This document shows positions 25,921 to 56,454 of a stretch of 56,809 nucleotides of DNA, in pieces. The DNA is from Stappia sp. TSB10P1A (GTDB lineage Bacteria > Pseudomonadota > Alphaproteobacteria > Rhizobiales > Stappiaceae). The stretch is from assembly GCF_900185725.1 (NCBI RefSeq), contig NZ_FYAU01000007.1:1-56809 (forward strand), in the 5' to 3' direction. The first letter of the stretch is position 1, and the number at the start of each line of letters is the position of its first letter. The notes beneath the pieces were generated by a model. It saw only the letters and a program-made list of their open reading frames with translations, made no database searches and was not told the DNA's origin. A program made the position numbers and the translations under genes.

Positions 25921-25940
25921 TGACGTATTTCAGAATTATG

Positions 25941-25952
25941 TGGCATATGCCA
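25941..25952. promoter_or_regulatory. Operator 2 of the SorC-type regulator (perfect palindrome)
   Basis: TGGCATATGCCA is a perfect 12-bp palindrome in the divergent 179-bp region between the operon's first gene and the regulator gene. Together with operator 1 it makes a helically phased pair, which fits cooperative binding by a tetrameric SorC-family protein. Confidence 0.6.
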
Positions 25953-26032
25953 AAAAATGCGGGAGGCCGCTCTAAACAATGGAAACCGGCGCGAAAATCT
26001 GCCAAGGACGGCTCAGGACGGAAGGAGCCTGC

Positions 26033-27659: not shown

Positions 27660-28814
27660 TCACGCAATCGAGAGCGAGGACGCTTCCATCTTGCGGGCCA
27701 TCAGACGCACCAATGGAGGGCGCATGAGGGCCGGAATGACCCAGGACTGGACCGCAAGGCCGAAGCGGCTGCGCGGCACGTAATGCCCGCCGATCTTCTC
27801 CGACTGCTTCTGCAGCCTCGTCGCCACGGGGCGCAGCCGCGCCTCATAGGCAGCCAGCGCCTCGGCCGGCGGCCGCGACGCCAGTTCGGCCGCCAGCACA
27901 TAGGCCCCGACGACGGCCGTGGAGGTGCCCTGCCCCGACAGGAAGGTCATGCAATGCGCCGCATCGCCAATCAGAACCACCCGGCCGCGCGACCATTGCG
28001 GCACCTCGACCTGGCAGATCGTGTCGAAGAACCCGTCCGACCAGTCGACGCCATTGCGGAACGTGTCGGACACCAGCGCCGGCCAATGCGAGAAGCGACT
28101 GGCGATCCGGGCGGTGCGTTCCTCCGCCGGCACGCGGGAGATCTCCTCGTCGCGCCAGCAGAACAAGGTCGACACCGTGCCGTCGCCGACCTGGTAGAGA
28201 CCGGCCTGCAGGTCGATATCCATGAAGGCTGCATAGTCGCAGTCCATCGCCTGCGACGAGGGCAAGCGCCACGCGGCGCTGCGATAGCCGAGCGGTTTCA
28301 GAAACTCCGAATGCGGGCCAAACTGCAGTTCCCGCACGCCGCTGCGATAGCCGTCAGCCGCCACCACAAGGTCGAAATGCTCGCTCGACCCGTCCGAGAA
28401 CCCCACCTCCACCGCCTCGCCCTTATCGGCAAGGGCGGTGATGGTGGTGCCATAGCGGATCGGCACCCGGCCCGCCAGTCGCTCGACCAGAACCTCCTGC
28501 AAGGCATCGCGCAGGATCATCAGCATGCGCTCGCCGCAGGCCGCCGACAGATGGCGATAATTGTAGGAGAACAGCTTGCGGCCTCGCGCGTCCCGATAGT
28601 CGGCCTGCTGGATCGAGATGGCTCGCGCCTTCAGGGCATCGATCAGGCCGAGCCGCTCGGCGACCTCCCAGCCGCCAAGATGCAGGCCGACCGCATAGCC
28701 GGCGGTGCGCAGCGCTGGTGCCTTCTCGACGATGACCGGCGCCATGCCGGCGTCGAGCAGGCAGTTGGCAAGCGCAAGGCCCGCCGGGCCGGCGCCGGAG
28801 ATCAGGATCCGCAT
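27660..28814 (-). CDS. FAD-dependent aromatic-type monooxygenase (PHBH/UbiH-like)
   Basis: 384 residues. N-terminal G-A-G-P-A-G-L-A-L-A (FAD ADP-binding), V-V-A-A-D-G-Y-R-S-G-V-R (the DG motif for FAD/NADPH) and L-I-G-D-A-A-H-C-M-T-F-L-S-G-Q-G-T-S (FAD ribityl GD motif) define a class A flavoprotein hydroxylase. It is the last gene of the metallophore transcription unit, starting 10 bp after the receptor gene, with GAGGCGG before the ATG. It could hydroxylate the aromatic or alkyl part of the product, or modify the imported chelate to release metal. Both roles are inference. Yersiniabactin loci have no equivalent. Confidence 0.83.
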   Translation of the reverse strand: MRILISGAGPAGLALANCLLDAGMAPVIVEKAPALRTAGYAVGLHLGGWEVAERLGLIDALKARAISIQQADYRDARGRKLFSYNYRHLSAACGERMLMILRDALQEVLVERLAGRVPIRYGTTITALADKGEAVEVGFSDGSSEHFDLVVAADGYRSGVRELQFGPHSEFLKPLGYRSAAWRLPSSQAMDCDYAAFMDIDLQAGLYQVGDGTVSTLFCWRDEEISRVPAEERTARIASRFSHWPALVSDTFRNGVDWSDGFFDTICQVEVPQWSRGRVVLIGDAAHCMTFLSGQGTSTAVVGAYVLAAELASRPPAEALAAYEARLRPVATRLQKQSEKIGGHYVPRSRFGLAVQSWVIPALMRPPLVRLMARKMEASSLSIA

Positions 28815-28824
28815 GCCTGCCGCC

Positions 28825-30843
28825 TCAGAAGGTGATCTTGAGGCGGCCGCCGATGGTGCGGCCCTTGCCCAGTTGGTAGACATTGCCGAAGCCGCTGGAG
28901 CTCGCATCGAACCCATAGACCGTATAGGTCTTGTCGGCGATGTTATCGACGTAGAAGTCGGCGACGACATTCTCGCCATGCTTCCACGACACCCCTGCGT
29001 CGAACAGCGCGTAGGCGCCCTGCCCCACGGTGTTGGCTTCGTCGAACCAGGTCTTGCCGACATAGGAGACGCCGGCGCGCGCGGTCAGGTCGCCGAAGTC
29101 GCCCGGCAGGCCGAACGTATAGGCCGCGGTCAGGTTGGCCGTGACATCCGGCGCGTAGGGCACCTTGTTGCCGGTGAGGTTGACGCCCGGATTGGCGGGG
29201 TTCCGGTAGCGGCTGAAATAGGTGTCGTTGAAGGCAATCCCGCCCGACAGCGAGAACGGCTGCACCGGCTGCCAGCGGGCCGTCAGGCTGACGCCCTTGC
29301 TCTCCACCTTGCCGACATTCTGCAGATACTGGCCGGTGACCGGGCCGACGGAAAGCTGGTAGTCGTCCGTCATCGTGAAATAGACGGAGGAGCCAAGCTC
29401 CAGCGTGTCGTCGAACAGACCCGCCTTGATGCCGGCCTCATAGTTGTAGCTGTGCTGCGGCTGATAGGAGAAGCCGATATTGGCCGGGGTCACCGCGCGT
29501 GTGAAGCCGCCGGCCTTGAAGCCCGTGCTGAACAGCGCGTAGACGAGCACATCGTCGGTGACCTTGTAGCTGGCGCCCACCTTGGGCGAGAGCGCCGAGA
29601 AATTGGCGCTGTTGGTCTGCCGGATACCGGCCAGCGTCGTGGCGGCATCGACCTGCTCATAATCGAAGCGCAGTCCGCCGGTCAGGTCGATCCGCTCGCT
29701 CGCATGCCAGGTGACTTCGCCGAAGGCCGCGTAGGAGCGGATTTCCTGATGCGAGGCGAGGGTTGCGGCCGGCACCTCGCGGCGGAAGTCGAGATCCTGG
29801 AAGTAGAGGCCGGCGACATAGTCGAACATCGCGCCCTCCTCCGGGTTGGAGGCGATGCGCAGTTCCTGGTTGAACGTCTTCTGCCATTCGGGCGTGTAGG
29901 AACCGAAGATCGTCCGCAGCAGCGAGCGGTCCTGATAGCCGGTCAGCGCGGTGATCGTCGCCGGACCCAGGTCGTAGGAGGCGGTCAGGCCGTAGCTGTC
30001 CGTCGTCAATTCGTAGTGCGAGGGCACCGGCAGCGAGATGCGGCTGTCCAGCATCGACTGCATCACGAAACGTTCCTCGTCGGACGTGCGCTGGCTGCGG
30101 CCGTAGGAGAGCATGATGTCGAGCGGGCTGCCGACGGGGGCGTAGCGCAGGCGGGCCTGGCCGGCCAGCGTCTCGCTGTCGCCGGTGCGCTCACCGGTGA
30201 ACATGTCGCGCATCTCGCCGTCCTCGTGTTCGGCGCTGAACCAGGCGTCGCCGTAGAGCACGTCCTCGATCAGCGCGCCGCCGAAGGCGACGCCGCCAAG
30301 CGCGCCGAGATTGGTCACGTTCAGGACCGGGCTGAGGAAATAGTCGTTGCCCGGCTTGCGGGTGACGACGTTGATCACGCCGCCGATGGCGTTGCGGCCA
30401 TAGAGCGTGCCCTGCGGGCCGTAGAGCAGTTCGACCCGCTCCAGGGTTTGCGGCAGCAACTGGCTGAACAGCGCCTGATCCTGCGGCAGCCCGTCGACAT
30501 AGAGCTGGGTCGCCGGATTGTAGAAGTCGACGGACGACTGGCCGCGCACGGTGATGCCGGAATAGGCCCGGCTCGAACGCTGACGGACCAGCACGTCCGG
30601 GAACACCCGGTCGATCCGGTCGATGGTGGTGAAACCGCGCTCCTCGAGTTCATCCGCTTCAACGGTCGCGATCTCGCCGATCGCCTCGAAGGCCTCCTGC
30701 AAGCGCTTGGTGGCCGAGACGAGAATGCGGGGAAGCGCCGTCGGTTCGCCGGACGCGGCACCCTCCTGGGCGTGCGAAGGGAACGGTCGCAGGACGGCGA
30801 TCAGCGCGACGAAGGAAACACCCAGCAGAGCACGGCTTCTCAT
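28825..30843 (-). CDS. fyuA: TonB-dependent outer-membrane siderophore receptor, FyuA (yersiniabactin receptor) type
   Basis: 672 residues. A signal peptide ends near P-S-H-A, then a TonB-box-like P-R-I-L-V-S-A-T-K (compare T-L-V-V-T-A-S-K in FyuA). The plug has D-F-Y-N-P-A-T-Q-L-Y-V-D-G-L-P-Q and L-L-Y-G-P-Q-G-T-L-Y-G-R-N, nearly the same as FyuA. Barrel strands include Q-N-V-G-K-V-E-S-K-G-V and end with a terminal Phe. It would import the metal chelate across the outer membrane. It overlaps the permease gene by 4 bp. The strong FyuA likeness shows that the chelate resembles yersiniabactin. Confidence 0.9.
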   Translation of the reverse strand: MRSRALLGVSFVALIAVLRPFPSHAQEGAASGEPTALPRILVSATKRLQEAFEAIGEIATVEADELEERGFTTIDRIDRVFPDVLVRQRSSRAYSGITVRGQSSVDFYNPATQLYVDGLPQDQALFSQLLPQTLERVELLYGPQGTLYGRNAIGGVINVVTRKPGNDYFLSPVLNVTNLGALGGVAFGGALIEDVLYGDAWFSAEHEDGEMRDMFTGERTGDSETLAGQARLRYAPVGSPLDIMLSYGRSQRTSDEERFVMQSMLDSRISLPVPSHYELTTDSYGLTASYDLGPATITALTGYQDRSLLRTIFGSYTPEWQKTFNQELRIASNPEEGAMFDYVAGLYFQDLDFRREVPAATLASHQEIRSYAAFGEVTWHASERIDLTGGLRFDYEQVDAATTLAGIRQTNSANFSALSPKVGASYKVTDDVLVYALFSTGFKAGGFTRAVTPANIGFSYQPQHSYNYEAGIKAGLFDDTLELGSSVYFTMTDDYQLSVGPVTGQYLQNVGKVESKGVSLTARWQPVQPFSLSGGIAFNDTYFSRYRNPANPGVNLTGNKVPYAPDVTANLTAAYTFGLPGDFGDLTARAGVSYVGKTWFDEANTVGQGAYALFDAGVSWKHGENVVADFYVDNIADKTYTVYGFDASSSGFGNVYQLGKGRTIGGRLKITF

Positions 30844-32105
30844 TGTTGATTTCCTTGTATTTCCAGCGCCCCGTCGACAGACAGAGGCGGTTCCGAAGCA
30901 ATCGAGAGGCGCCGGGCGAGACCCGCACCGACGAGAAGCAGAACAGCGGCAAGGGCAAAGACGGCAGCATGCCCGAAGGTCTGGCCGATGAAGCCGGCGG
31001 CAATGCCGAAGGCGATGGCCATCACCGCGTCGGCGCTCTGCAGCAGGGCGAAATCGGTGCCGGCCTGACGCGGCGAGCACCAGCCGATCATCACAGCGTA
31101 AAGCGCGATCATCGACGTCGCCGCGGCGGCGGACTGGGCCAGGATCAGCGGCGCGACGAGATCCTTGGGGACGATACCGCTCCACACGCCCGCGAGCGCC
31201 AGGAACAGCGTCGCGTTGGCGAGGGCGGCGAGCATCAGGGCACGCGCGGAAGGACGCCGCAGCACCGCCATCATCGCCAGCGCGGCGGCGAGCCCGGCGG
31301 CGGCGCCGCCCGCTCCCTTGAGCCAGCCGATCTCGGCAAGCGTCAGCCCGGCATCGACCAGGAACGGCCCGATCAAGGCGATGCCGAGCCGCAGGCCCGA
31401 CTGGTAGACCAGCATGAAGCCGAGGCCGCGGCGATACTCCATCCTGCGGAACGACGCCGACAGGCGCGGACGCGACAGCCCCGCCGCAACCGGCACCGGC
31501 GCGCCGGCCTCGATCCCCCGCGCTGCGACGGCCGGGATCGTCAGCACCGCGACGACGCCCGCCATGAACAGCATCGAGGCCTGCCAGCCGAAGGCGGCAT
31601 AGACCGGCAGCCACGCCCCGACGCCGAGAAGGAACCCGACATAGCCGCCGAAGACCCCGGCGCTGCTGACGGTGGCGCGGCGGCTTTCGTCGACCGCCTC
31701 GACCGCCAGCGCATCGGTGGCGATGTCCTGGGTCGCCGCGAAGACGGCAACGGCCAGCAGAACGCAGAGCATCAGTTCGAAGTGCCCGGCCGGCGACAGC
31801 AGCGACAGCACCGCGAAGCTCGTCACGATCAGTGCCTGGCACAGCAGCAGCCAGGACCGCCGGCGGCCGAGGCGGACGACGCAGAAGCGGTCGACCAGCG
31901 GCGCCCACAGGAATTTCAGCGCCCAGGGCAGGAACAGCAGCGACAGCAGGCCGATGCGGTCGAGCCCCATCCCCTCCTCCCGCAGCACGGTCGGAAGACC
32001 GGTCTGCACGAGGCTGCCGGTGATGGCCTGCGCCGCGTAGAGCCCGATGAACAGGCTGACGATCCTGAAGGTGAAGGCGCCTGAAGCGCGCGGATGCGAT
32101 GTCAT
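30840..32105 (-). CDS. Inner-membrane siderophore permease, RhtX/FptX (AmpG-like MFS) family
   Basis: 421 residues with about twelve hydrophobic spans. L-P-W-A-L-K-F-L-W-A-P-L-V-D-R followed by R-R-S-W-L-L is the loop 2-3 signature of the RhtX/FptX single-subunit siderophore importers (rhizobactin, pyochelin) and of AmpG. A-T-Q-D-I-A-T-D-A-L-A-V is also conserved in that group. It would carry the intact metal complex into the cytoplasm, replacing the YbtPQ ABC pair of Yersinia. It has only a weak GGGG-TAAG ribosome site and a 124-bp leader, the one long gap in the cluster. Confidence 0.85.
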   Translation of the reverse strand: MTSHPRASGAFTFRIVSLFIGLYAAQAITGSLVQTGLPTVLREEGMGLDRIGLLSLLFLPWALKFLWAPLVDRFCVVRLGRRRSWLLLCQALIVTSFAVLSLLSPAGHFELMLCVLLAVAVFAATQDIATDALAVEAVDESRRATVSSAGVFGGYVGFLLGVGAWLPVYAAFGWQASMLFMAGVVAVLTIPAVAARGIEAGAPVPVAAGLSRPRLSASFRRMEYRRGLGFMLVYQSGLRLGIALIGPFLVDAGLTLAEIGWLKGAGGAAAGLAAALAMMAVLRRPSARALMLAALANATLFLALAGVWSGIVPKDLVAPLILAQSAAAATSMIALYAVMIGWCSPRQAGTDFALLQSADAVMAIAFGIAAGFIGQTFGHAAVFALAAVLLLVGAGLARRLSIASEPPLSVDGALEIQGNQQ

Positions 32106-32229
32106 GAAGTGCTTACCCCGACCACAGTTCGGCCTTAATTGCCCCTCGCAAGGTCTGCCACCCGGATCGGCCCTGCTTCAGCCCCGATCAGGGCCTTTCG
32201 TGTCCCTCGTGCGAACCGTTGCCCGCATG
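32106..32229 (-). promoter_or_regulatory. 124-bp gap before the uptake genes (possible separate promoter)
   Basis: This is the only gap above 50 bp in the minus-strand cluster and it separates synthesis from uptake genes. It contains a 7-bp inverted repeat (32169-32175 and 32189-32195) without a following T-run. I see no clear Fur, Irr or RirA box. A secondary promoter or partial terminator here is possible but not shown. Confidence 0.3.
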
Positions 32230-33003
32230 TCACGCCAATCCCGCATGGCGGCGCAGCCGCGCGAGGACGTCGGCAAGCACCGATGGCTCGGAGAGGTAGA
32301 AGTGATCGCCCGACAGATCCGCCCGCGCGAACCGGGATCCGCAGACCGCTTCCCAGGCATCGACGTCGGCCGCCGACACTTCCGGGTCGTCCTCGCCGCG
32401 CAGGGCCAGAACGGGGCAGCCGATCCGCGAGCCCGCCCGCAAGGCATAGGTTTCGGTCAGCGCGAAGTCCGCCCGGATCGCCGGCAGGAACAGCTCCAGC
32501 AGTTCCTCGCTTTCCAGCACCTCGTCGCTGGTGCCGCCCAACCGGCGCAACTCGCCGACCAGCATCGCGTCGGACATCGAGTGGCGCCACGGACGCGGCG
32601 TCGGCAACTGCGGCGCCCGGCGGGCCGAGGCGATGAAAGCCGATGGAGGCAGGCCGCGCGCCTGCAGCACCAGCCCCGCCTCGAAGGCGACGAGGGCGCC
32701 GAGGCTGTGCCCGAAAAGGATTACGGGGCGACCGGCCGGGACGGCGCTGCATAACGCAGGCACGAGCCCGGCCAGCACCCCGTCGACACCGGTGCTGGCG
32801 GCTTCCGAAAAGCGACGTCCGCGACCGGGCAGTTCGACCGGGCAGACATCGATATCGGCAAGCAGCGGATGATCCCGCCAGCCATGAAAGAAGGATGCGG
32901 CTCCACCGGCATGGTGGAAAGCAAAAAGCACCGCCCGTCCTCGCCCGTCCGGCAGGCCGAAGGGGAACCAGGCGGGAGCGACGCGAAGGGGTGCGTTCAT
33001 CAT
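32230..33003 (-). CDS. Type II thioesterase (YbtT-like)
   Basis: 257 residues, alpha/beta hydrolase of the NRPS/PKS editing type. Catalytic serine in L-F-G-H-S-L-G-A, acid in R-G-E-D-D-P-E, histidine in S-G-D-H-F-Y-L. The N-terminal F-H-H-A-G-G-A-A-S-F-F and P-V-E-L-P-G-R-G-R-R motifs are characteristic. It clears misprimed carrier domains, as YbtT does. Its ATG overlaps the upstream stop by 4 bp. A second thioesterase domain lies in the preceding gene, so this one is probably the editing enzyme. Confidence 0.88.
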   Translation of the reverse strand: MMNAPLRVAPAWFPFGLPDGRGRAVLFAFHHAGGAASFFHGWRDHPLLADIDVCPVELPGRGRRFSEAASTGVDGVLAGLVPALCSAVPAGRPVILFGHSLGALVAFEAGLVLQARGLPPSAFIASARRAPQLPTPRPWRHSMSDAMLVGELRRLGGTSDEVLESEELLELFLPAIRADFALTETYALRAGSRIGCPVLALRGEDDPEVSAADVDAWEAVCGSRFARADLSGDHFYLSEPSVLADVLARLRRHAGLA

Positions 33004-34640
33004 GCGACCTCCACCGGCCGAAGGCCCTGGCTGAGCTGCGCGGCCACGGCCTCACGCACCGCATCCGCGACGGCAGGCGCATCGTCGCGCGCCATGAAAT
33101 GCCCGCCCTCGAGCCGGCGATGGGTGAAGCCGCCAGCGGTGCGCGGCCGCCAGCTTTCCACGGCCTCCTTTGAGACGAGGTCGTCCTGCGTGGCGGACAG
33201 CGCCAGCATCGGCGCGTGGATCACCGCCTCACTGCGATAGCTGGCGGCCATCGCCGTGTCGCCCTCCATCGTCGTCTGCAGCGCCGACAGCATCTCGCCG
33301 CTCGACAGGATGTTTTCCGGCGTGCCGCCGAGCAGCCGCAGCCGGGTTTCCATGCCGTCCTCCCCGAAGTAGCTGCGCAGGTCCGGCAAGGGCTGGTGCG
33401 GGCCGGGACATACGCCCGCGACCACCAGCGACGGTTGGCAGGTGCCCTCCTGCTCCAGCCGGTGCGCCAGTTCGAAGGCGATCTTGCTGCCGAGGCTCCA
33501 GCCGACGAGAACGAGCGGCGTCTCGCGATAGGGTCTCACTCTCGGCAGCAGCGCCTCGACCGCCGCCGACAGCGTGGTGAAGGGAGGCTCGGCGATCCGT
33601 CCCTCGCGGCCGGGAAGCTGAACCGGCGACACCTGCCAGTCGCGTGGGAATTGCGCCTGCCAGTTCTTGAAGGCCGAGGCGCCAGCCACCGCATGGGGAA
33701 AGGCCAGGATATTGACGTCGGCTCCACATCTTGGACCGCCGAACGGAAACCAGTCGGCGCGCTCGGCGAGAGACGCACGCGCCTCGTCCAGCAGCGCTTC
33801 GATCCGCGCCGCGCGCTTTTCGAGCTGCCCCGTATCCACACCTGCGAGCCCGCCCTCGCCGCGCCGCCAGCGGCAGAGCAGATAGGCGATGGAGCCGCGG
33901 TCGAGGCAGTCGTACATCGCCGATCCGGGAGCCGCGAAATAGTCCTGGACCTCTACCGCTCCCCTGCTGCCGGCAAGGCGCGCCATCAGCCCGGCGGGCA
34001 TCCGGTCTCGCGCGCGGCAGACCTGCCGCGTCACGTCGCGCAGGCTCTCCAGGACGAAGCCCATCTCCTCCATCGTCTCGATGAACGGGCCGACGAGTTC
34101 CGCAGGCCAGAGATCGCCATGCAGGAACAGCCCGCCGGGCGCCAGCACGCGGCGGACATGGCGCAGGAAGGCACCCATGTCCGGATAGGCGCCGGAAGAT
34201 TCCAGGTTGAGGACAACATCCTGGCTGCCGTCAGCCAGTGGCACGGCACAGGCATCGGCCACCTGCAGGCGCACACGCCGCCCGGAGAGCAACCGTCGGG
34301 CGCCGGCGATGTTGTCGGCGCTGAGATCGAGGCCGACCGCGAAGAGCGGACGGTAGTGCCGCGTCACGACGTCCAGCGCGCCGCCACGACCGCAGCCGAT
34401 GTCCGCGACCCTCAGGCCGTCGAGCGAGAGGGGCCCCAGCAGTTCGGCGACGAGACGCTCGCAGGCGTCGTTGGCACCCGGTTGCGCAAGACCGGGCACG
34501 GCACCATCGGCAAGACCGGGAACGGGCTCGTAGCCCCAATTGAGGAAATGCGCATGCCCGTCCAGCCCGGCTTGAACGAAAGCGTCGTCGAGGGCGGAAT
34601 AGGCGCGGCGCGTACGGTCTGCGGCCGGTTCAGTCGGCAT
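33000..34640 (-). CDS. Methyltransferase-thioesterase fusion protein
   Basis: 546 residues. Residues about 1-255 are a class I SAM methyltransferase: motif I V-A-D-I-G-C-G-R-G-G (near 78-88), L-D-L-S-A-D-N, and N-L-E-S-S-G-A-Y-P-D, as in small-molecule O/N-methyltransferases. Residues about 290-546 are an alpha/beta-hydrolase thioesterase: L-P-G-R-E-G-R, catalytic Ser in V-G-W-S-L-G-S-K (near 380), Asp in T-Q-D-D and His in G-G-H-F-M (near 515). In yersiniabactin synthase the last MT and the TE are built into Irp1; here they are on one separate protein without a carrier domain. I chose the ATG at 34640; a TTG 18 bp upstream is possible. It overlaps irp3 by 11 bp. Confidence 0.85.
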   Translation of the reverse strand: MPTEPAADRTRRAYSALDDAFVQAGLDGHAHFLNWGYEPVPGLADGAVPGLAQPGANDACERLVAELLGPLSLDGLRVADIGCGRGGALDVVTRHYRPLFAVGLDLSADNIAGARRLLSGRRVRLQVADACAVPLADGSQDVVLNLESSGAYPDMGAFLRHVRRVLAPGGLFLHGDLWPAELVGPFIETMEEMGFVLESLRDVTRQVCRARDRMPAGLMARLAGSRGAVEVQDYFAAPGSAMYDCLDRGSIAYLLCRWRRGEGGLAGVDTGQLEKRAARIEALLDEARASLAERADWFPFGGPRCGADVNILAFPHAVAGASAFKNWQAQFPRDWQVSPVQLPGREGRIAEPPFTTLSAAVEALLPRVRPYRETPLVLVGWSLGSKIAFELAHRLEQEGTCQPSLVVAGVCPGPHQPLPDLRSYFGEDGMETRLRLLGGTPENILSSGEMLSALQTTMEGDTAMAASYRSEAVIHAPMLALSATQDDLVSKEAVESWRPRTAGGFTHRRLEGGHFMARDDAPAVADAVREAVAAQLSQGLRPVEVA

Positions 34641-35754
34641 CGGTAAGGGTCCTTGCAAAATCGACGGGATCGGGATGCGGCGGCGGCGGCACGGGCATGG
34701 CGCGTTCGTGCGGAGGCCCGGCCTGGCGCAGCACGGTCAGCCAGGCCTTGCCGAGGTCGGCGAGATAGGCGTCCGACTGCCAGTGCACGCTGCCCGGCGT
34801 TTCGATGGCACGGCGCAGCTCGGCGAGCGCATGGCCGATGGCCTCGGGGAACTCGGCATGCACCACGTCCCAGAACGGCGCGCCGGCGGGCGAGCCCAGC
34901 ACATGGGCGCTCGGCTGCGTGAAGTGGCGACAGCCGGCATGGCGCTCCGGCGACAGCAGATAGGAGCTCGCCTCCCCGTCCTGCCGGTAGTCGGGCGCAT
35001 AGAGCGAGTGGCTCCATACGACCGGGCCGAAACTGTTGACCAGATTGACGGTCCCTTCCGGCCAGCCGACTGCCATGCGGTGCATGACCAGCGAGTGATG
35101 GTCCGGGTCGGACGGGTCGAGCCAGGATTGCAGCATCAAGGAGAAGGGAACGCCGCCGACCCGCCCCTGGAAAGCATGGAACGGCAAGGCCTCGGACGGC
35201 GGAACCAGAGGCCCGATGCATTCGAGCCCGACCAGCGAGCCGAGGCTGCGCCCCAGGCTGTCGAGCGCCGAATACAGTAGCTGCGGACTGGTGGTGACTT
35301 CCGCAAAGGCCGCCGGCGCCCGTTCGCCCGCCGCGCTCGCATAGGCGATGAAGTGCCGGAACGCCGGCAGATGCGGGTAGAAGCTGTTGACGTGATAGCG
35401 CACGCCCGCGGCTTCCGCATGCCGGCGCAGCGAGGCTACCTCTCCCGGATGGACGGGATGTTCCTGCAGCACGTGAATGCCGCGCTTCAGCAATGCCTCG
35501 GCAAGGCGGGTGCCGTCGCCGCCGAACAGCGTGGTGCGGACCACGACGCAGGCCACGTCGATATCGGCCGGCAGATCTGCAACCTCCCGGTAGAGCGGCA
35601 CGGCGAGATGCGCAGCAAGCGCACGCGAGCGCGCCCCGCCCCGCGCCAGGATACCGGCCAGCCGGACATCCCCGCCGAGCCTTGCGATCGCGGCAAGATA
35701 ATGCTCGCCGAAGCAGGTGCCGCAGACGACGACGTTCAGCACCTCACCCGCCAT
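34630..35754 (-). CDS. irp3: Thiazolinyl imide reductase (Irp3/YbtU/PchG family)
   Basis: 374 residues that track Irp3 through their length: V-V-V-C-G-T-C-F-G-E-H-Y-L (NADPH site; V-G-A-K-F-G-E-M-Y-L in Irp3), G-G-A-R-S-R-A-L-A, V-V-V-R-T-T-L-F-G-G-D-G-T, V-L-Q-E-H-P-V-H-P (proposed catalytic region), S-F-Y-P-H, T-T-S-P-Q-L-L-Y-S-A-L-D and M-H-R-M-A-V-G-W-P-E-G. The enzyme reduces one carrier-bound thiazoline to a thiazolidine with NADPH. Its presence predicts one reduced ring in the product. GGGAGG precedes the ATG, which lies 11 bp inside the upstream gene. Confidence 0.92.
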   Translation of the reverse strand: MAGEVLNVVVCGTCFGEHYLAAIARLGGDVRLAGILARGGARSRALAAHLAVPLYREVADLPADIDVACVVVRTTLFGGDGTRLAEALLKRGIHVLQEHPVHPGEVASLRRHAEAAGVRYHVNSFYPHLPAFRHFIAYASAAGERAPAAFAEVTTSPQLLYSALDSLGRSLGSLVGLECIGPLVPPSEALPFHAFQGRVGGVPFSLMLQSWLDPSDPDHHSLVMHRMAVGWPEGTVNLVNSFGPVVWSHSLYAPDYRQDGEASSYLLSPERHAGCRHFTQPSAHVLGSPAGAPFWDVVHAEFPEAIGHALAELRRAIETPGSVHWQSDAYLADLGKAWLTVLRQAGPPHERAMPVPPPPHPDPVDFARTLTDAD

Positions 35755-38700
35755 GACCGATACCTCCCAGCCAGGCGCGCAGGCCGAACTCGCCAGCCGG
35801 TGGTTTGCTGGTGCCGACCAGATCCGCCAGCGGCAGCGACCAGGCCTCCTCGCCTCTCGACAGGATCGCCAGCACGGTGTCGAAGACGGAGGCAGCAAGC
35901 CCTTGCGGAAACAGGCCGGCGAGCTCGTCGATGTTGCACAGCAGCTCGCGCTCCTCCTCCAGGACCTGGAAATGCAGCGCAACCTGCGGCTGGGCGGCGT
36001 ATTCGTAAGCTGGCATGCCGAGCAGCGGGTCGGCGCTTTCCGGCAGCGCATAGGCCTGCCGCACGCCGAGCAACGACGTCATCGCCACCGGGAACATCAG
36101 CGTCGGCAGGTCCTGCGCCGCATTCGCCTCGGCAAGCCCTCCGCACAGCAGCGGCGACAGGTTCTCGCGGATCGCGTCCTCGGTCCGCTGCATGAGATCG
36201 CCGAAGGTCGTCACCCTTGAGAAGTCGAACGGCACCGCCATCGCCGCGCTCGCCTCGCAGGCGATGTTCATAGCTTCCGCATGCAGCGGCTTGCGGTCGG
36301 GGTAGGCGAGTTGCAGGGAGAACCGCTGCGTGTCCGCCGACCATCCGCGCAAACCAGCGGCGAAGGCTGCAAGCACCAGCGCCGTGCCGGACACGCCCCG
36401 GCCGGCCGCCGCATCGCGAACCGAAAGCCAGGAGGCGCGGTCGAGCGCCCGGCGTTCGATGGCGAACCGCGGCGGCAGCGTTTCGGGCAGCGCGGCAAGC
36501 GGCAGGTCGGGCGCCGGCGGCAAGGCCGCAAGGCGCTCGCCGGCCGCCTTGCGCGCCACGGCAGAGGCCTTCGTCTCGCCCAGCAGTGCCATCCCGCTCA
36601 TGTAGTCAGTGGCCGAAAAGCCAAGCCGCGGCAGTTCCCGCTCAGGATCGGCCACATGGCGGCCAAGCTCGCGCAGCATCACCTGGAAGCTCTCGATATC
36701 GAGGAAGGTCGTGTCGATGTCGAAATGCAGCCGAATGCGGCCCTCCGGCAGCAGCGAGGCACGCCATTCGAAGAACGGCCAGGCAGCAAGGTCGAAGGCC
36801 TGTGCGCTCATGCGCCGGCGGGTGTCCGTGAGCCGCTCCCCCCGCTCCGCATCGGGCAGGTCGGAAAGGTCCTCGCGGACGATCGGAGGAACCGGCCCGA
36901 CCTCGGCAAGCACCGCCCTGCCCTCGCCATCGATCGACATGCGCAGGGCCGGGTGGCGGTGGACGAAACGGGCCCAGGCGCGCTCGAAGGCGTCGAGGTC
37001 GAAACTCGCCGTCTCCTTGTCGTATTCCACATACATGTGCCGGGCCGTGCCGCCGAGCGGCACATCGCTCCGCCGGCCCAGCCACCACGCCCGTTGCAGC
37101 GGCGACAGCAGCCAGCTCATGCCCGGGCGCGCTGGCACCGGTGCGAGATCACCATTCGCGAGTGCAAGTCCTTGGCGACTGGCAGACAGTTCCGCGAGCG
37201 CTGCACGAAGAGATCCCGCCTCGGCGTCCTCCCGCAAACCGCCTTGCGCCCGGATTCCCTCCACCAGTGCGGCGACCGTGTCGAAGCGCATGGCCGCCTC
37301 GCCCGACAGCCGCAGCCCGGTTTCGGCGGCGAGCCTTTCGGCAAGATCGAGGAACAGCAGCGAGTCGAGCCCAAGGTCGATCAGCCGGCTCTCGGGGTGC
37401 ACCGCATCCAAGGGAAGCGACAGGAGGTCGGCAATCAGCGTCCTGACGATGCTCTCGAGGTCCGCTCCGGCCGCCGCCGGCATCTGGCCGCCCGCCTCGC
37501 GCAAATGCTTCGCGAGCGAGGCCGGCGTATGATCCTGAAGGGCGAAGCCTGCGGAAAGATCGAGCCCGAGCTCGCCCTTCACCGCCTGCGCCAGTTCCAG
37601 CATCATCAGGGAATCGACACCCAGCGACAGCAGGCTTGCCTGCATGTCGATCCGCTCGCGCGGAAGAGCGAGCAGGCTCGCCAGCCGTTCGACAAGCCAG
37701 GTCTCGACGCCGAGAGGTTCGACAGCATCCCCATGCGCAGGCGCCGGTTCGCGGGCCGGTGCGGCCGGCGCCATTCGCGACAGGGCCGGCGGCAGGCGTC
37801 CGCCGGCGGCGCCCGTCAACGCCTGCCAGTCGACATGCAGCGGGCTTGCCACCGCATGCCCCCGCTGCAGCGCCGTCTCCATCAGCGCCAACGCTTCGGC
37901 CGGCGTGAGCGTCAACATGCCCCGGCCGGCGAGGTCCCGTGCGAGCTGTTCCCGTTCCGCGCGCCCATCCTGCCAGTATCCCCAGGCAAGGGCGGTCGCG
38001 GCGACCCCGTCCGCGCGCAAGGCCGCCGCCAGCCCCTCCAGGGCGGCGTTGGCAATGGCATGGGCCGCCTGGCCTGCCGGCCCGAAGACGGTCGCAGCCG
38101 AGGAGGCAAAGACCACACGCGCAGGCGCAAGGCGCGCAAGATGCCGGCACAGGGCTTCGGCCGGCCGCAGCTTGGGCGCCAGCACCCGCTCCAGCGCCGC
38201 CGCATCGAGAGCCGCGAGCGGCCTGTCGTCAAGGTGCCCGGCGAAGTGGAAGAGCGAGGCAAGTCCCCGCCCCTCGATGCCGGCGAACAGACGGTCGAGA
38301 TGGTTCTCTTCCGTCAGGTCCACCTCGCTGTCCACGGTCACCTCGACCCCGGCGGCGGTCAGCGCGGCGATCCGGGCGGCCTCGACGTCCGACGGAGCGC
38401 GGCGCGCAACGAGGCGGATGCTGCGCGCGCCTTTTCCGGCGAGCCATTCGGCCGTCGCCAGGGCCATCGGCGCAAGGCCCCCAAGCAGGAGGTGAATACC
38501 GTCCCGTTCGATGCCGAGCGGTGCTGCAGCACCATCCTCCACTACCAGACGGGGCACGAAACGCCGCCCCCGGCGCAATGCGGCAACCGCCTCGCCGTCC
38601 TCGACGAGGCAGGCCCGATGCAGCGCGGCATCTGCGTGACTGCCATCGTCGTCGACGAGCCGCACCGCCAGATCCGGATATTCCTGAGCGGCAACCCGCA

Positions 38701-41700
38701 CGAGGCCTGCAATGCCGGCCAGCAACGGCGCTTTCGGCCGGTCCCAGGGAACGACGGCCAGCGCCCCGTGCGTCAGCAGCACGAGCCGGCACCCTGCCTG
38801 CGAGGCCTCGCGAATGAGTTCGGCAAGGCCGGCATGGAGGATAGCAAGGGACAACCCCTCATCGACATCCGCGAGATCGACGAGGCATGTGTCGCCGGCG
38901 GACAGTCCCGGCGGTACGAAAAACCCGGAGGCACGCGAGATCACCGCCGCGACACGCCCCGCAGACGCGCGGGAGTTGGCAGCCTCCCAGCGCCAATGGC
39001 AGAGTTGGGGGCGCGTCGCGGCGGCGGCCGGCCGACCCTTGCGGAGATTGTCGATCCACAGAGCCGGCCAGTCCGATGTGTCGAAGACGGCGAGGTCCAG
39101 CCCGCCGTCCTGGCGCGTCCTGACGGAAAGGCGCGCGTCCGACAGTTGCCCGCACGTACCGCTGACCGCATCGACGACAAGCGGGCCCTGCCCGGCCAGT
39201 TCTGCAAGCGCCGGGCGCAAAAGCTCGGCAAGCGGGCCGACAACGATTGCCGCGCCCTCCTGAGGCAGGGGCGGCAGCGCAGCGCCGGCAAACGGGACGG
39301 GCCTTGCCGTGATAAGGCGCGCGCCCTCTTCCGTCGCAAGGGCGAGCTCATCGGAGGCAGTGATCCAACGCGCGGCCTGCGGTGTTCCGGCCGGCGCAAG
39401 CTGCACGCCTTCGAACCGCCAGAACCCGTCGCCGGCCCGCGCGGCAAGGTCGGCAAGCAGGCCCGCTGCATCGGTGACGGGCACCGTCTCCGGCTGGCGC
39501 CTGGCGAGCACGGACGCCGAATGCGCAGGCGGCGCTCCGTTCCGGGCAAGAAGAATGCTCTCGCCGATGGCGCCGTCCTTCTGCTCCGGCGGCGGGAAGG
39601 ACGACCAGTCGGACCATCCCGCCTCGGTGAGGAACGTCCCCCAGCGGGCAAGCGAGGGGAACAGTTCGCCGCCGCGCGCCTCGATGTCGTCGAGCACCGG
39701 CACCAGTGGCCCGAAAACGAAGTCGAACAAGGGCTTTGGCTGCGAAATCTCACGCATCAGGAGGACACCGCCCGGCGCCAGCAGGCGGCGCACATCGGCG
39801 AGAACCCTTGTCAGGTCGCGGCCGTTATGCAGCACGTTGGCCGCCACCACGAGATCGTAGACGCCCGGCTCGAAGCCCTGGGCGGCAAGGTCCTTCTCGA
39901 TGTCCAGCGTCGCGAAGTCGAGGAACGGAAAGGCGGCGAACTTGTCGCGCGCCTTGCGCAGGAACAGCGGCCCGATATCGGTGAAAGTGTAGCGGGTCCG
40001 CCGCGCCGGCAGGACCGGCAGCAGCGACGAGGTCGTACCGCCGGTGCCCGCGCCGATTTCCAGGACGCGCAGGGGCTTGTCGGCCGGCAGCGCTTCCACG
40101 ACGGCCGCGACCGCGTCGGCGGCGAGATCGTTGAGGAAGACGCTGTCGCGCTGGCGCTCGTACATGTCCTCCACGTCATCCATGGCAGCGGACGGGAACA
40201 CCAGCGACACCGCATCCACCGCGCCGGTCAGCATCTGCGCCAGCTGCGGACCGACGCGGGCGACCATGCCGGTCAGGCGCCGGTAGCCGCGCGCAGCCAT
40301 GTCCGCGAGAAGCGGCTCCGCCTCGTCCATCGGCGGCGCCTTCAGGACGCCGAACCTGTCCCCCTCCCGTTGCAGAACGCCTTCGTTCACGAGATCGCGC
40401 AGCAGCCGGGCGGTGAGCTGGGCGTAGTGCGGAAGGATGCCGCCCGCCGCCATCGCCTCCTCCACCGAGCGCCAGACACCACCGGCGAAGACGCCGAGCC
40501 TGTCGAAGGCATGGGCGACATGGATGGCGTGCAGGCGCGCGACGGCCGCGCCTTCCGCGTCGAGCGACGACCAGTCATGCTCGGCCGCGCGCAGCCGCGA
40601 AGCCTCGCCGAGACTGGCGATCAGTTCGCGCCAGCCGTCCCCCCGTTGACCTTGCGCGCCCGGCCGGGCAATGCGGCCGCCAATGCGCGGGGCGATGGGG
40701 GCGACCACGCGCGGCCCGGCGGGGCCGGCGGGCGGCTGTGCCTCCATCAAACCGGCACGCCAGAATGACGCCGCCGCGTCGCTCGACCGCGCGAAGGCCT
40801 CGTCCTCGCCGCCGGTCTCGGCAAACAGCGACAGTGTGCGGGCAAGAGCCAGCCCGTCTCCGCCGCCGATCTCCAGCCGCATGCCCCCTGCGCCGGAGTG
40901 CTGGCGGACGAGCATGTCGCAATACCGCGGCAGCTCGCCCTGATAGGCGCCTTCCAGCAGCAGATCCGCATGGGCTTGCGACAGGACACGCAGCGCCGGC
41001 AGGTCCGGCGCCGCGAGGGCGAGCCGCAAGGGTCCTTCGGCCTTGCGCGGCGCCGGCTTCAGCGGTTCGGGCAGGTCCTCGACGATGACATGGCAATTGG
41101 TCCCGCCGATGCCGAAGGAGCTGACGCCGGCGATCCTCGGTCCTTCCGGCCAGGCCTGCAGGGCCTGCGGCACGATGAAGGGCGTTGCGTCGATTTCCAG
41201 CGCCGGATTGGGCTTGCGAAAATGCAGGCACGGCGCGATCAGCCCGGTGCGCACGCTGAAGGCGGCCTTGATCAGCGCGCCGATGCCGGCGGCGGTGTCG
41301 AGATGCCCGGTATTCGCCTTGAGCGCGCCGAGCGCACAAGGATGATGACGCGGCGTGTCGCGTCCGAAGGCCTCGGCCAGCGCATTGAGCTCGATCGGGT
41401 CGCCGAGCGGCGTGGCGGTCCCGTGCGTCTCCACCATGCCGATGCGGTCCGAGGTGACGCCGGCCAGCGCCATCGCCTCCTCGATCACCGCCCGCTGTCC
41501 AGCAAGCGAGGGCGCGGTGAAGCCGGCCTTGTCGGTGCCGTCATTGTTGACCGCCGATCCGCGGATGACCGCGAGGATGCCGTCGCCGTCCTCCAGCGCC
41601 CGGCGCAACGGCTTCAGCAGCACGACGCCGACGCCATTGCCGATGAAGGTACCGGAGGCTTCCGCATCGAAGGGCCGGCAAGTCCCGTCGGGCGAGAAGA

Positions 41701-42394
41701 TCATGCCCGGCTGGTGGAAATAGCCGGCGGCCATCGGGAAGGTCAGCGCCGCCCCGCCGGCCAGCGCCAGATCGCATTCGCCGCTGCGCAATTGCTCGCA
41801 AGCGACATGGACGGCAACCAACGAACTGGAGCACGCCGTCTGGACCGTCATCGCCGGCCCCATAAGGCCCAGCTTGTAGGCGGTGCGCGTCGCCAGATAG
41901 TCCTTGTCGTTGCCGATCAGCCGCTGGAAGGTCCGCGACTGGCCGGCGGACAGCACGTCTTCCGGCTGCGGCATGATGAAAGTGCTCATGCGCGCGGACC
42001 CGAAGACCCCGACGCGCGTGCCGGCGACCGAATCCGCCAGCCCTGCCATGTCCAGCGCCTCGCGCGAGCAGGCGAGGAACAGGCGCTGCTGCGGGTCGAT
42101 GGTCGCAGCCTCCGCCGGCGAGTAGCCGAACAGTCCGGCATCGAAATGCTCGGCCTCGTCGACGACGCTGGCAACGGGGACGAAATCGTCTCGTTCCAGC
42201 AGCGCGGGATCGAGACCGGCGGCGGCGAGATCCTGCGCGGTCACCCGGCGCGACAGTTCCTCGCCATCGGCAAGCCGCCGCCAGAAGGTGAAGGGATCCG
42301 CCGCGCCCATGAAGCGGCATCCCGCCCCGATGATCGCGACCGGTTCCACGTCCTGGTAGATCTCGGTGAAGAGGCTCATGTCGAAAGCGCGCAT
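35744..42394 (-). CDS. PKS-NRPS hybrid KS-MT-KR-ACP-ACP-Cy (shortened, AT-less Irp1/HMWP1-like)
   Basis: 2216 residues. Order: ketosynthase (about 14-440; Cys in Q-T-A-C-S-S-S near 185; H-G-T-A-T and N-T-G-H present), a post-KS linker with no acyltransferase, C-methyltransferase (motif L-E-I-G-A-G-T-G-G near 780), ketoreductase (cofactor site near 1305; His replaces the catalytic Tyr near 1444), two carrier domains (G-V-D-S-L near 1592, G-L-D-S-L near 1676) and a heterocyclisation domain (about 1760-2180; D-T-T-F-L-D-I-E-S, the DxxxxDxxS motif, near 1897). Yersiniabactin Irp1 is KS-AT-MT-KR-ACP-Cy-MT-PCP-TE, so AT, final MT, PCP and TE are missing. It would add a methylated malonyl unit to the two-ring chain. 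Start at 42394 by position; its ribosome site is weak. Confidence 0.9.
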   Translation of the reverse strand: MRAFDMSLFTEIYQDVEPVAIIGAGCRFMGAADPFTFWRRLADGEELSRRVTAQDLAAAGLDPALLERDDFVPVASVVDEAEHFDAGLFGYSPAEAATIDPQQRLFLACSREALDMAGLADSVAGTRVGVFGSARMSTFIMPQPEDVLSAGQSRTFQRLIGNDKDYLATRTAYKLGLMGPAMTVQTACSSSLVAVHVACEQLRSGECDLALAGGAALTFPMAAGYFHQPGMIFSPDGTCRPFDAEASGTFIGNGVGVVLLKPLRRALEDGDGILAVIRGSAVNNDGTDKAGFTAPSLAGQRAVIEEAMALAGVTSDRIGMVETHGTATPLGDPIELNALAEAFGRDTPRHHPCALGALKANTGHLDTAAGIGALIKAAFSVRTGLIAPCLHFRKPNPALEIDATPFIVPQALQAWPEGPRIAGVSSFGIGGTNCHVIVEDLPEPLKPAPRKAEGPLRLALAAPDLPALRVLSQAHADLLLEGAYQGELPRYCDMLVRQHSGAGGMRLEIGGGDGLALARTLSLFAETGGEDEAFARSSDAAASFWRAGLMEAQPPAGPAGPRVVAPIAPRIGGRIARPGAQGQRGDGWRELIASLGEASRLRAAEHDWSSLDAEGAAVARLHAIHVAHAFDRLGVFAGGVWRSVEEAMAAGGILPHYAQLTARLLRDLVNEGVLQREGDRFGVLKAPPMDEAEPLLADMAARGYRRLTGMVARVGPQLAQMLTGAVDAVSLVFPSAAMDDVEDMYERQRDSVFLNDLAADAVAAVVEALPADKPLRVLEIGAGTGGTTSSLLPVLPARRTRYTFTDIGPLFLRKARDKFAAFPFLDFATLDIEKDLAAQGFEPGVYDLVVAANVLHNGRDLTRVLADVRRLLAPGGVLLMREISQPKPLFDFVFGPLVPVLDDIEARGGELFPSLARWGTFLTEAGWSDWSSFPPPEQKDGAIGESILLARNGAPPAHSASVLARRQPETVPVTDAAGLLADLAARAGDGFWRFEGVQLAPAGTPQAARWITASDELALATEEGARLITARPVPFAGAALPPLPQEGAAIVVGPLAELLRPALAELAGQGPLVVDAVSGTCGQLSDARLSVRTRQDGGLDLAVFDTSDWPALWIDNLRKGRPAAAATRPQLCHWRWEAANSRASAGRVAAVISRASGFFVPPGLSAGDTCLVDLADVDEGLSLAILHAGLAELIREASQAGCRLVLLTHGALAVVPWDRPKAPLLAGIAGLVRVAAQEYPDLAVRLVDDDGSHADAALHRACLVEDGEAVAALRRGRRFVPRLVVEDGAAAPLGIERDGIHLLLGGLAPMALATAEWLAGKGARSIRLVARRAPSDVEAARIAALTAAGVEVTVDSEVDLTEENHLDRLFAGIEGRGLASLFHFAGHLDDRPLAALDAAALERVLAPKLRPAEALCRHLARLAPARVVFASSAATVFGPAGQAAHAIANAALEGLAAALRADGVAATALAWGYWQDGRAEREQLARDLAGRGMLTLTPAEALALMETALQRGHAVASPLHVDWQALTGAAGGRLPPALSRMAPAAPAREPAPAHGDAVEPLGVETWLVERLASLLALPRERIDMQASLLSLGVDSLMMLELAQAVKGELGLDLSAGFALQDHTPASLAKHLREAGGQMPAAAGADLESIVRTLIADLLSLPLDAVHPESRLIDLGLDSLLFLDLAERLAAETGLRLSGEAAMRFDTVAALVEGIRAQGGLREDAEAGSLRAALAELSASRQGLALANGDLAPVPARPGMSWLLSPLQRAWWLGRRSDVPLGGTARHMYVEYDKETASFDLDAFERAWARFVHRHPALRMSIDGEGRAVLAEVGPVPPIVREDLSDLPDAERGERLTDTRRRMSAQAFDLAAWPFFEWRASLLPEGRIRLHFDIDTTFLDIESFQVMLRELGRHVADPERELPRLGFSATDYMSGMALLGETKASAVARKAAGERLAALPPAPDLPLAALPETLPPRFAIERRALDRASWLSVRDAAAGRGVSGTALVLAAFAAGLRGWSADTQRFSLQLAYPDRKPLHAEAMNIACEASAAMAVPFDFSRVTTFGDLMQRTEDAIRENLSPLLCGGLAEANAAQDLPTLMFPVAMTSLLGVRQAYALPESADPLLGMPAYEYAAQPQVALHFQVLEEERELLCNIDELAGLFPQGLAASVFDTVLAILSRGEEAWSLPLADLVGTSKPPAGEFGLRAWLGGIGHGG

Positions 42395-42428
42395 GGGTCT
42401 GCCTGACTGAAATGAGGGAATTGACGGA

Positions 42429-55037
<12,609 letters not shown>

Positions 55038-55130
55038 GCGTGAACTCCAGCTAACCTGTCGCAGTGCGATAACCCGCTGTTTTCCCCTAGCGAATGGCGC
55101 ATTTGGTGGAACAGGCGGGTTTCGTGGGAG

Positions 55131-55159
55131 CGCGATTAAATGTTGACTTTTTCAGTCAA
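55131..55159 (-). promoter_or_regulatory. Candidate promoter of the megasynthase operon
   Basis: On the minus strand TTGACT (55159-55154) is followed about 15 bp later by an AT-rich TTTAAT/TAATCG tract in an otherwise GC-rich area. It would give a leader of roughly 90 nt before the ATG at 55037. The spacing is short of ideal. The hexamer is half of a small inverted repeat (TTGAC/GTCAA) that also reads TTGACT on the plus strand. Confidence 0.35.
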
Positions 55160-55246
55160 GAATTGGAGATCATGGGTGTGCCCGCTACCCCGATCCGGGC
55201 CGGCAAGGTCCCAATCGGATACTTATTTTCGCGTGCACTCGTCGCC

Positions 55247-55323
55247 CTGGTCACCCGAATCTGAAGTTCGTCACCTTTGGCGGCATGCTCCGAACGAACT
55301 TCAGATTCAAAAAGGGTGACCAG
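55247..55323. repeat. 77-bp stem-forming element A (one of an inverted pair)
   Basis: A nearly perfect dyad: outer arm 55247-55256 pairs with 55314-55323 (10 bp), inner arm 55257-55271 pairs with 55294-55308 (15 bp), a 5-nt A bulge lies at 55309-55313, and the loop is 22 nt (55272-55293). It is in the divergent region between the megasynthase and the AraC regulator. The same architecture and related loop sequence recur in opposite orientation at 55337-55413. Function unknown: protein-binding dyad, structured leader RNA or a mobile palindrome are all possible. Confidence 0.8.
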
Positions 55324-55336
55324 CAAGTCTATGTTT

Positions 55337-55413
55337 CTAGTGTGGTTTTCGAATTTGAAATACGCTCTGGGCGTGCCGCCGAAGTGAGGCGTATTTCAAA
55401 TTCACCACACTAG
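55337..55413. repeat. 77-bp stem-forming element B (inverted partner of element A)
   Basis: Outer arm 55337-55346 pairs with 55404-55413 (10 bp, perfect), inner arm 55351-55365 pairs with 55389-55403 (15 bp, perfect), a 4-nt bulge lies at 55347-55350, and the loop is 23 nt. Its reverse complement aligns end to end with element A, including the bulge position and the loop core GCGGCA-GC. About ten stem positions differ between the copies and each change is matched by a compensating change in the opposite arm. It ends 36 bp before the AraC regulator start. Confidence 0.8.
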
Positions 55414-55449
55414 GCACTTTTCTGGTGCACAGCCCCGGGAGAGGTTCGA

Positions 55450-56454
55450 ATGGCTCTGAACATCGAAGAGCGCCCTTTGAGCCAGGCTGCCAGCGAGCTC
55501 GATCTCGCGGCCCGGCAGCCAAGCCACAGCGGCCTGACGGAAACGGCGATCGACGGAGACTTCCGCCGCTTCGGCATCCGCCTCGGGCTGGAACTGTCCG
55601 TTTATGACCTGCGGTTGCAGGACCGCTTCCGCCGGACGGCCAACATGGCGCCGGGCCTGACCATCGTCCTTCTGCAACACGCCACCGGCAGCAGCATCCT
55701 CAAGGCGCTGGACGGCGATCCACGCGCCGTGCGGCTGGACTACGACCCGCGCTCGGCGCTGATGATCTTCTCCAGGACACCGATCTGCGGGGTCTACGAC
55801 GTGCCGGCGGACACGCGGTTCCGCGGCATCGAGATCCGCGCCAGCGAGGCGTTCCTGCGCCGGCTCGACGCCATGGTGCTGTTCGAGCAGGCGCTCGGCG
55901 GGCATCCGCTCACCGTCGCGGCCACCGGCTCGTTCTGGGTCGGGCGGTTCCCGGCAACGGAGATGATCGACGCGCTCGCCGCCGGCCTGGTCGCCAGCGG
56001 GCTCGACCGCTGCTGCGAGGATCTCGCCATCGAGGCGCGCTGCCTCGACCTGCTCACCGCCGCCATCTCGATGGTGCGCGAGCCGCTGTTCTGCCAGAGG
56101 ACCAAGATCCTGCGCGACTCGCGCAAGCTCAACGAGGCCAAGAACACGCTGCTGCGCCAGCTCGACCGGAGTTGGACGATCCACGACCTCGCCACCTGCG
56201 TCGGCCTCAGCGAAAAGCGGCTGAAGGACGGCTTCCGCCAGCAGTTCGGCCTGCCGGTCTACAGCTTCCTGCAGAAGTCGCGGATGGAGGAGGCACGCAC
56301 GCTGCTGGCGCGCGACGGGGCGACGGTGACCGAAACGGCGCTGGCGGTCGGCTATGCCAACCCCAGCCGATTCTCGCAGTTGTTCCTGCGCGAATACGGC
56401 ATGACGCCCTCCGACTTCGTCCGCGGCAAGCGGCTGGAGGCATCCGGCACATAG
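55450..56454 (+). CDS. AraC-family regulator of the metallophore locus (YbtA/PchR-like)
   Basis: 334 residues. An N-terminal sensing domain of about 220 residues is followed by two C-terminal helix-turn-helix units: W-T-I-H-D-L-A-T-C-V-G-L-S-E-K-R-L-K-D-G-F then V-T-E-T-A-L-A-V-G-Y-A-N-P-S-R-F-S-Q-L-F, ending in the family G-M-T-P-S-D-F-V-R. Length and layout match YbtA and PchR, which activate synthesis and uptake genes when the ferric chelate enters the cell. It is divergent from the megasynthase, with the two 77-bp elements in between and GGGAGAGG before the ATG. Direct control of the 27-kb minus-strand unit is likely. Confidence 0.88.
   Translation: MALNIEERPLSQAASELDLAARQPSHSGLTETAIDGDFRRFGIRLGLELSVYDLRLQDRFRRTANMAPGLTIVLLQHATGSSILKALDGDPRAVRLDYDPRSALMIFSRTPICGVYDVPADTRFRGIEIRASEAFLRRLDAMVLFEQALGGHPLTVAATGSFWVGRFPATEMIDALAAGLVASGLDRCCEDLAIEARCLDLLTAAISMVREPLFCQRTKILRDSRKLNEAKNTLLRQLDRSWTIHDLATCVGLSEKRLKDGFRQQFGLPVYSFLQKSRMEEARTLLARDGATVTETALAVGYANPSRFSQLFLREYGMTPSDFVRGKRLEASGT

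What the first reader, a model, noticed from the sequence alone, without database searches (positions are those of the whole stretch)
27660..56454. Fatty-acid-primed yersiniabactin-type metallophore locus in an alphaproteobacterium, predicted to make a two-ring alkylphenol-thiazoline-thiazolidine chelator
Seen: FAAL-ACP-KS-AT-KR-ACP fused directly to the Irp2 pattern Cy-A(Cys)-PCP-Cy-PCP, then an Irp1-like KS-MT-KR-ACP, an Irp3 reductase, FyuA-like receptor, RhtX/FptX-like permease and AraC regulator. Known from memory: micacocidin uses FAAL plus an iterative KS-AT-KR module to make pentylsalicylate; agrochelin from marine Agrobacterium has two sulfur rings and a dimethyl-hydroxy acid end. Inferred: alkylsalicyl-thiazoline, one reduced and N-methylated ring, then a 3-hydroxy-2,2-dimethylpropanoate end. 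With a hexanoate starter my count is C23H34N2O4S2. There is no salicylate synthase or YbtE-type ligase in the locus, as this model expects.
Basis: partly seen in the sequence, partly recalled or inferred. Interest (0 to 1): 0.85.

Follow-up and report, generated by a model that had tools for sequence, protein, structure and literature searches.

The report
Agrochelin-type iron-chelator cluster in Stappia

Summary
Window 27660-56454 carries a nine-gene, FAAL-primed, yersiniabactin-type PKS/NRPS locus. The nearest named loci are Stappia, 84-96% identical gene by gene. The predicted formula C23H34N2O4S2 is that of agrochelin/massiliachelin (PMC6604713). The cluster type is published for Stappia quadratibracata 28M-7T with its product, agrochelin II, and MIBiG entry BGC0002764 (PMC12997852). 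The window has the eight-residue insertion in the epimerase-like domain that the paper ties to agrochelin II. It is therefore known. The strain was not identified: this assembly does not match the published one.

Synthase 2 has no recognisable acyltransferase, two carrier domains and a third, C-terminal heterocyclization (Cy) domain. That Cy has His where cyclizing Cy domains have the dyad Asp, in 6 of 6 clusters compared, which favours two rings over three. A methyltransferase-thioesterase fusion is, by elimination, the N-methyltransferase. Open points: what the kept but probably non-cyclizing Cy does, where the malonyl comes from, and why a FAD monooxygenase is conserved.

The parts
42429..55037 (-). 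synthase 1 (AgrA/MicC-like), 4202 aa: FAAL-ACP-KS-AT-KR-ACP-Cy1-A-MTe-PCP-Cy2-PCP
   Evidence: Pfam; PDB relatives; carrier Ser motifs
53304..55001 (-). FAAL domain, starter activation
   Evidence: PDB relatives are FAALs
50439..51362 (-). AT domain of synthase 1, HAFH motif (malonyl type by recall)
   Evidence: Pfam PF00698; motif seen
46062..47102 (-). single amino-acid A domain, pocket read by eye DLYNLSMIW (close to the Cys code as I recall it)
   Evidence: Pfam; alignment
44847..45170 (-). methyltransferase-like epimerase domain (MTe) with an eight-residue insertion
   Evidence: Pfam; insertion in 3 of 6 aligned, all Stappia
35744..42379 (-). synthase 2 (AgrB/MicG-like): KS-MT-KR-ACP-ACP-Cy3, no AT recognised; the open frame runs from 42514, likely ATG start 42379
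   Evidence: Pfam; open frame; start candidates
35825..37111 (-). Cy3, C-terminal Cy domain with His2181 (35972-35974) at the dyad Asp position
   Evidence: PDB alignment; conserved His
34630..35754 (-). thiazolinyl imide reductase (Irp3/AgrC-type)
   Evidence: TIGR01761, 370 bits, over cut-off
33000..34658 (-). methyltransferase-thioesterase fusion, proposed N-methyltransferase and release enzyme
   Evidence: Pfam Methyltransf_11 and Thioesterase; role by elimination
32230..33003 (-). type II thioesterase
   Evidence: Pfam PF00975, 145 bits
30840..32105 (-). MFS permease, RhtX/FptX-like
   Evidence: TIGR02718, 162 bits, below cut-off
28825..30843 (-). TonB-dependent receptor, FyuA-like
   Evidence: 4epa, 247 bits
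27660..28814 (-). FAD-dependent monooxygenase, role unknown
   Evidence: PF01494; orthologue at 61% in the Rhizobium cluster
55450..56454 (+). AraC-type regulator, divergent
   Evidence: PF12833

Best explanation
This is a Stappia copy of the published agrochelin/massiliachelin-type cluster. It most likely makes a two-ring alkylphenol-thiazoline-thiazolidine siderophore, agrochelin II or a close isomer (C23H34N2O4S2) with chain-length relatives. The steps are inferred from domains and from the published compounds: the FAAL loads hexanoate on the first ACP; KS-AT-KR adds three malonyl units to give 6-pentylsalicyl-ACP; Cy1 and Cy2 install two cysteine-derived rings from the single A domain; the imide reductase reduces the second ring; a methyltransferase, by elimination that of the MT-thioesterase fusion, N-methylates it; synthase 2 adds one malonyl unit supplied in trans (by the AT of synthase 1, FabD or another AT), C-methylates it twice and reduces it; a thioesterase releases the acid. 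The receptor and permease take up the metal complex and the AraC protein regulates. Cy3 probably does not cyclize.
For: Domain content; conserved gene order in two named Stappia contigs and a Rhizobium plasmid; nine genes here, and the paper's minimal cluster is nine genes; formula equal to massiliachelin; product shown for a Stappia with this cluster type; the MTe insertion shared with the two named Stappia relatives and absent in 3 of 3 non-Stappia clusters; no salicylate synthase over cut-off in the genome; Cy3 with His for the dyad Asp in 6 of 6.
Against: No product was measured for this strain and the published BGC0002764 sequence was not compared directly. Synthase 2 has no AT and its KR has His for the catalytic Tyr, so how the last unit is loaded and reduced is not explained. 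A third Cy is present. The FAD monooxygenase has no step in the known structure. The RhtX/FptX match is below its cut-off.
Confidence: 0.9

Rival explanations
1. A three-ring, micacocidin-like product: Cy3 condenses and cyclizes a third cysteine carried on the second ACP of synthase 2 or on a carrier from elsewhere.
For: Cy3 keeps the DxxxxD region, the dyad Thr position and the helper Gln position and is under constraint (dN/dS 0.16-0.22 against three Stappia). The related Serratia symbiotica cluster has a further Condensation-A-MT-PCP-TE synthetase.
Against: The dyad Asp is His in 6 of 6, and the positions I map to floor-loop D1770 and latch T1856 of HMWP2-Cy2 are Glu and Gln. No carrier domain follows Cy3. 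No MicH-like synthetase is in the window. The published Stappia product has two rings.
Confidence: 0.04
2. A modified agrochelin: the FAD monooxygenase oxidises the product, so the main compound carries an extra oxygen or a thiazole in place of the thiazoline.
For: The monooxygenase is kept in the Stappia, Rhizobium (61%) and Undibacterium (33%) clusters.
Against: The dominant ion published for Stappia is m/z 467.205, without an extra oxygen. No monooxygenase match at E <= 1e-3 in the fetched Serratia stretch.
Confidence: 0.06

Closest known systems
Agrochelin II cluster of Stappia quadratibracata 28M-7T (MIBiG BGC0002764; PMC12997852, section 17 and passages seen)
   Same: Same genus by inference; nine genes; single Cys A domain; MTe with an eight-residue insertion; predicted product formula as its main ion.
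   Different: Not shown to be the same strain: none of the 64 contigs has the quoted lengths 168,820 or 69,494, and the published 77.7-kb region cannot lie on this 56,809-base contig. The paper puts the KR Tyr-to-His change in AgrA; here it is in synthase 2.
Massiliachelin cluster of Massilia sp. NR 4-1 (PMC6604713, whole text seen)
   Same: FAAL-primed MicC-like and MicG-like synthases, no micH, product of the same formula.
   Different: Published as a D-thiazoline (active MTe) epimer; its sequence was not obtained here.
Rhizobium rhizoryzae DSM 29514 plasmid NZ_CP049249.1
   Same: All nine genes in the same order at 51-70% identity; synthase 2 without AT and with Cy3 carrying His.
   Different: Lacks the MTe insertion, so perhaps another epimer. 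No product known to me.
Yersiniabactin (Irp2/Irp1/FyuA) and micacocidin (MicC/G/H) systems
   Same: Cy-A-MTe-PCP-Cy-PCP logic, imide reductase, FyuA-like receptor; FAAL start as in micacocidin.
   Different: No salicylate synthase (yersiniabactin) and no third-ring synthetase in the window (micacocidin); synthase 2 without an AT.

Membership tests
Agrochelin/massiliachelin-type cluster | FAAL-ACP-KS-AT-KR-ACP fused to Cy-A-(MTe)-PCP-Cy-PCP | tested here: met
Agrochelin/massiliachelin-type cluster | MicG/AgrB-like synthase with KS, MT, KR, ACP | tested here: met
   no AT found
Agrochelin/massiliachelin-type cluster | thiazolinyl imide reductase | tested here: met
   TIGR01761 over cut-off
Agrochelin/massiliachelin-type cluster | no MicH third-ring synthetase | tested here: met
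   none in the window; other contigs not searched for it
Agrochelin II subtype (Stappia) | eight-residue insertion in MTe | tested here: met
   position compared with the paper's wording, not with its sequence
Agrochelin/massiliachelin-type cluster | product C23H34N2O4S2 under iron limitation | not testable with these tools
   needs LC-MS
Yersiniabactin cluster | salicylate synthase | tested here: not met
   none over cut-off in the genome
Yersiniabactin cluster | YbtE-type salicylate-AMP ligase | tested here: inconclusive
   no TIGR02275 match over cut-off; 49 sub-threshold matches not examined singly
Micacocidin cluster | MicH synthetase for a third ring | tested here: not met
   none in the window

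The most novel reading that the evidence does not exclude
The terminal Cy3 of AgrB-type synthases is a maintained, non-cyclizing domain with a job of its own (for example handing the chain to the separate thioesterase, or docking the trans-acting AT), left from a three-ring ancestor; and the module runs on malonyl borrowed from the AT of the partner synthase.
Probability: 0.25. Interest if true: 0.4.

Novelty: already known. Interest (0 to 1): 0.25.

Why it matters
It confirms from sequence that the agrochelin cluster type sits in Stappia and, as a complete nine-gene set, on a Rhizobium plasmid, which fits the first isolation of agrochelin from a marine 'Agrobacterium'. The domain details (no AT, a kept but inactive-looking Cy, a His-type KR, an orphan monooxygenase) pose concrete questions on how such assembly lines change ring number and release their product.

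Tried and rejected
Three-ring reading from Cy3: set aside as the main reading because of the Asp-to-His change and the missing carrier. Massilia and Ralstonia sequences: not obtained. Searching around a Burkholderiales record needs a genome handle, and even samples of the class (1 of 385 genomes) and phylum (1 of 398) gave only the window's own MT-thioesterase at E <= 1e-60. Those samples evidently also missed the other Stappia carriers, so they say little about spread. The 2011 micacocidin paper is not held, so whether MicG has an AT or a terminal Cy is unknown to me. Rows set aside: 13 of the 17 matching genomes match over the KS region only and were not counted as carriers; that tool scored only four candidates per genome.

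Full report
Observation. The stretch 27660-56454 holds nine genes: eight on the minus strand (two synthases, imide reductase, MT-thioesterase fusion, type II thioesterase, MFS permease, TonB receptor, FAD monooxygenase) and a divergent AraC-type regulator. Pfam finds in synthase 1 (4202 aa) two AMP-binding, four PP-binding, KS, AT, KR, two Condensation stretches and a methyltransferase-like domain; carrier serines and Cy motifs place the copies not located by Pfam's best stretch. The first adenylating domain is a FAAL by its PDB relatives. Both of its Cy domains keep the TPQVxxDxQ stretch with the dyad Asp (Asp2564, Asp4012). The A-domain pocket, read by eye, is DLYNLSMIW, close to the Cys code as I recall it.

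Synthase 2 has KS, MT, KR, two PP-binding and a C-terminal Condensation stretch. No AT was found: no Pfam AT match at E <= 0.001 in the window protein or in the Rhizobium, Undibacterium and Serratia counterparts, and the AT of synthase 1 matches the KS-MT linker only at E 0.058. The genome has four further Acyl_transf_1 matches outside the window contig, so supply in trans is possible; which one serves is unknown.

Where it is. The nearest named loci are Stappia sp. SP245 and Stappia sp. WLB 29. Eight genes align at 84-96% identity in the same order, and the AraC gene is cut by the locus end there (89 and 134 residues seen, about 93% identical). Two genomes that genome-search runs same-genus (G081, G078) give the same synthase 2 match values as these two contigs, so the genus is Stappia by inference. 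In the family sample of 87 genomes, 4 of 14 same-genus genomes (own included) and 0 of 73 others have a match along synthase 2. The imide reductase family occurs at E <= 1e-40 in 3 of 297 sampled genomes of the order, each of this genus. Among 72,556 plasmid records, Rhizobium rhizoryzae has the nine-gene set, and Undibacterium sp. KW1 and Serratia symbiotica have related FAAL-primed sets.

What is known. Of PMC12997852 I saw section 17 whole and passages; of PMC6604713 the whole text; of PMC10291242 parts 1-2 of 4; of PMC9547227, PMC11837247 and PMC12971057 passages. PMC6604713 gives massiliachelin as C23H34N2O4S2, an agrochelin epimer from a FAAL-primed cluster lacking micH. PMC12997852 reports agrochelin II from Stappia quadratibracata 28M-7T, the cluster in five further Stappia strains, nine conserved genes and BGC0002764. 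It attributes the stereochemistry to an eight-residue insertion in the MTe domain. The window has such an insertion, as do 2 of 2 named Stappia relatives; 3 of 3 others lack it. The locus is therefore a known cluster type. It may lie in one of the paper's species, but that is not shown: size fits 28M-7T, yet no contig of 168,820 or 69,494 bases is among the 64 (the nearest to the latter is 69,097), and a 77.7-kb region cannot lie on a 56,809-base contig.

Third Cy domain. Cy3 aligns along its length with HMWP2-Cy2 (7jtj). PMC9547227 names D1862 and T1830 as the putative catalytic dyad and Q1864 as helper. In Cy3 the Thr (Thr2146) and the Gln are kept, but the Asp position is His2181. His is there in 6 of 6 sequences; in Undibacterium the second half of the domain is a separate ORF. 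By the same alignment floor-loop D1770 is Glu and latch T1856 is Gln (my mapping). dN/dS of Cy3 is 0.16-0.22 against three Stappia and 0.27 against Rhizobium; Cy1 and Cy2 give 0.08-0.12 against two Stappia and 0.13-0.18 against Rhizobium (Rhizobium values rest on dS above 1 and are rough). So Cy3 is a kept domain, somewhat less constrained, that has probably lost cyclization. This agrees with a two-ring product.

Ketoreductases. Synthase 1 keeps the catalytic Tyr (Tyr1946) in 6 of 6; synthase 2 has His1485 in 6 of 6. PMC12997852 assigns Tyr-to-His to HMWP1, MicC and AgrA. In the window it lies in the AgrB counterpart, so AgrA/MicC there may be a slip for AgrB/MicG; I could not check their sequence. 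How the hydroxyl arises with a His-type KR is open, as the paper also says.

N-methylation. Three methyltransferase-like domains are in the locus: MTe in synthase 1, the MT in synthase 2 (fits the gem-dimethyl group) and the MT of the MT-thioesterase fusion. By elimination the last is the N-methyltransferase; this is inference only.

Verdict. Observation and product prediction are right; the thing is already published. Interest is low to moderate, for the AT-less synthase, the kept non-cyclizing Cy3 and the orphan monooxygenase. In what I read of PMC12997852 and PMC6604713 I saw no discussion of these three; supplements could not be read.

Noticed in passing
L022 (Serratia symbiotica plasmid pSsAf2.3-1), 14213-41885: A FAAL-primed relative of the cluster on a plasmid of an insect symbiont, with a further Condensation-A-MT-PCP-TE synthetase on the other strand, so perhaps a three-ring product.
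   Followed up: partly
L021 (Undibacterium sp. KW1 plasmid pUKW01), 576-29369: A related cluster in which synthase 1 is annotated as two ORFs and the Cy3 domain is split over two ORFs, with two MT-thioesterase proteins (39% and 29% identical to the window's).
   Followed up: partly
window 4127-7614 (-): Peptide/nickel-type ABC transporter genes (ATPase and two permeases), family matches below their cut-offs; a link to the metallophore was not tested.
   Followed up: no
window 12435-27037: Sugar-type genes: acetolactate-synthase-like TPP enzyme (below cut-offs), xylulokinase (TIGR01312, over cut-off) and a DeoR/LsrR-like regulator (below cut-offs).
   Followed up: no
own genome, contigs C41 (about 310-342 kb) and C63 (about 161-258 kb): Further large frames with adenylation-domain matches, one of 6867 aa, and two Acyl_transf_1 matches on C63; possibly more PKS/NRPS clusters.
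   Followed up: no
PMC12997852, section 17: The text places the KR Tyr-to-His change in AgrA and MicC; in the window it is in the AgrB counterpart, so the published naming may be a slip.
   Followed up: partly
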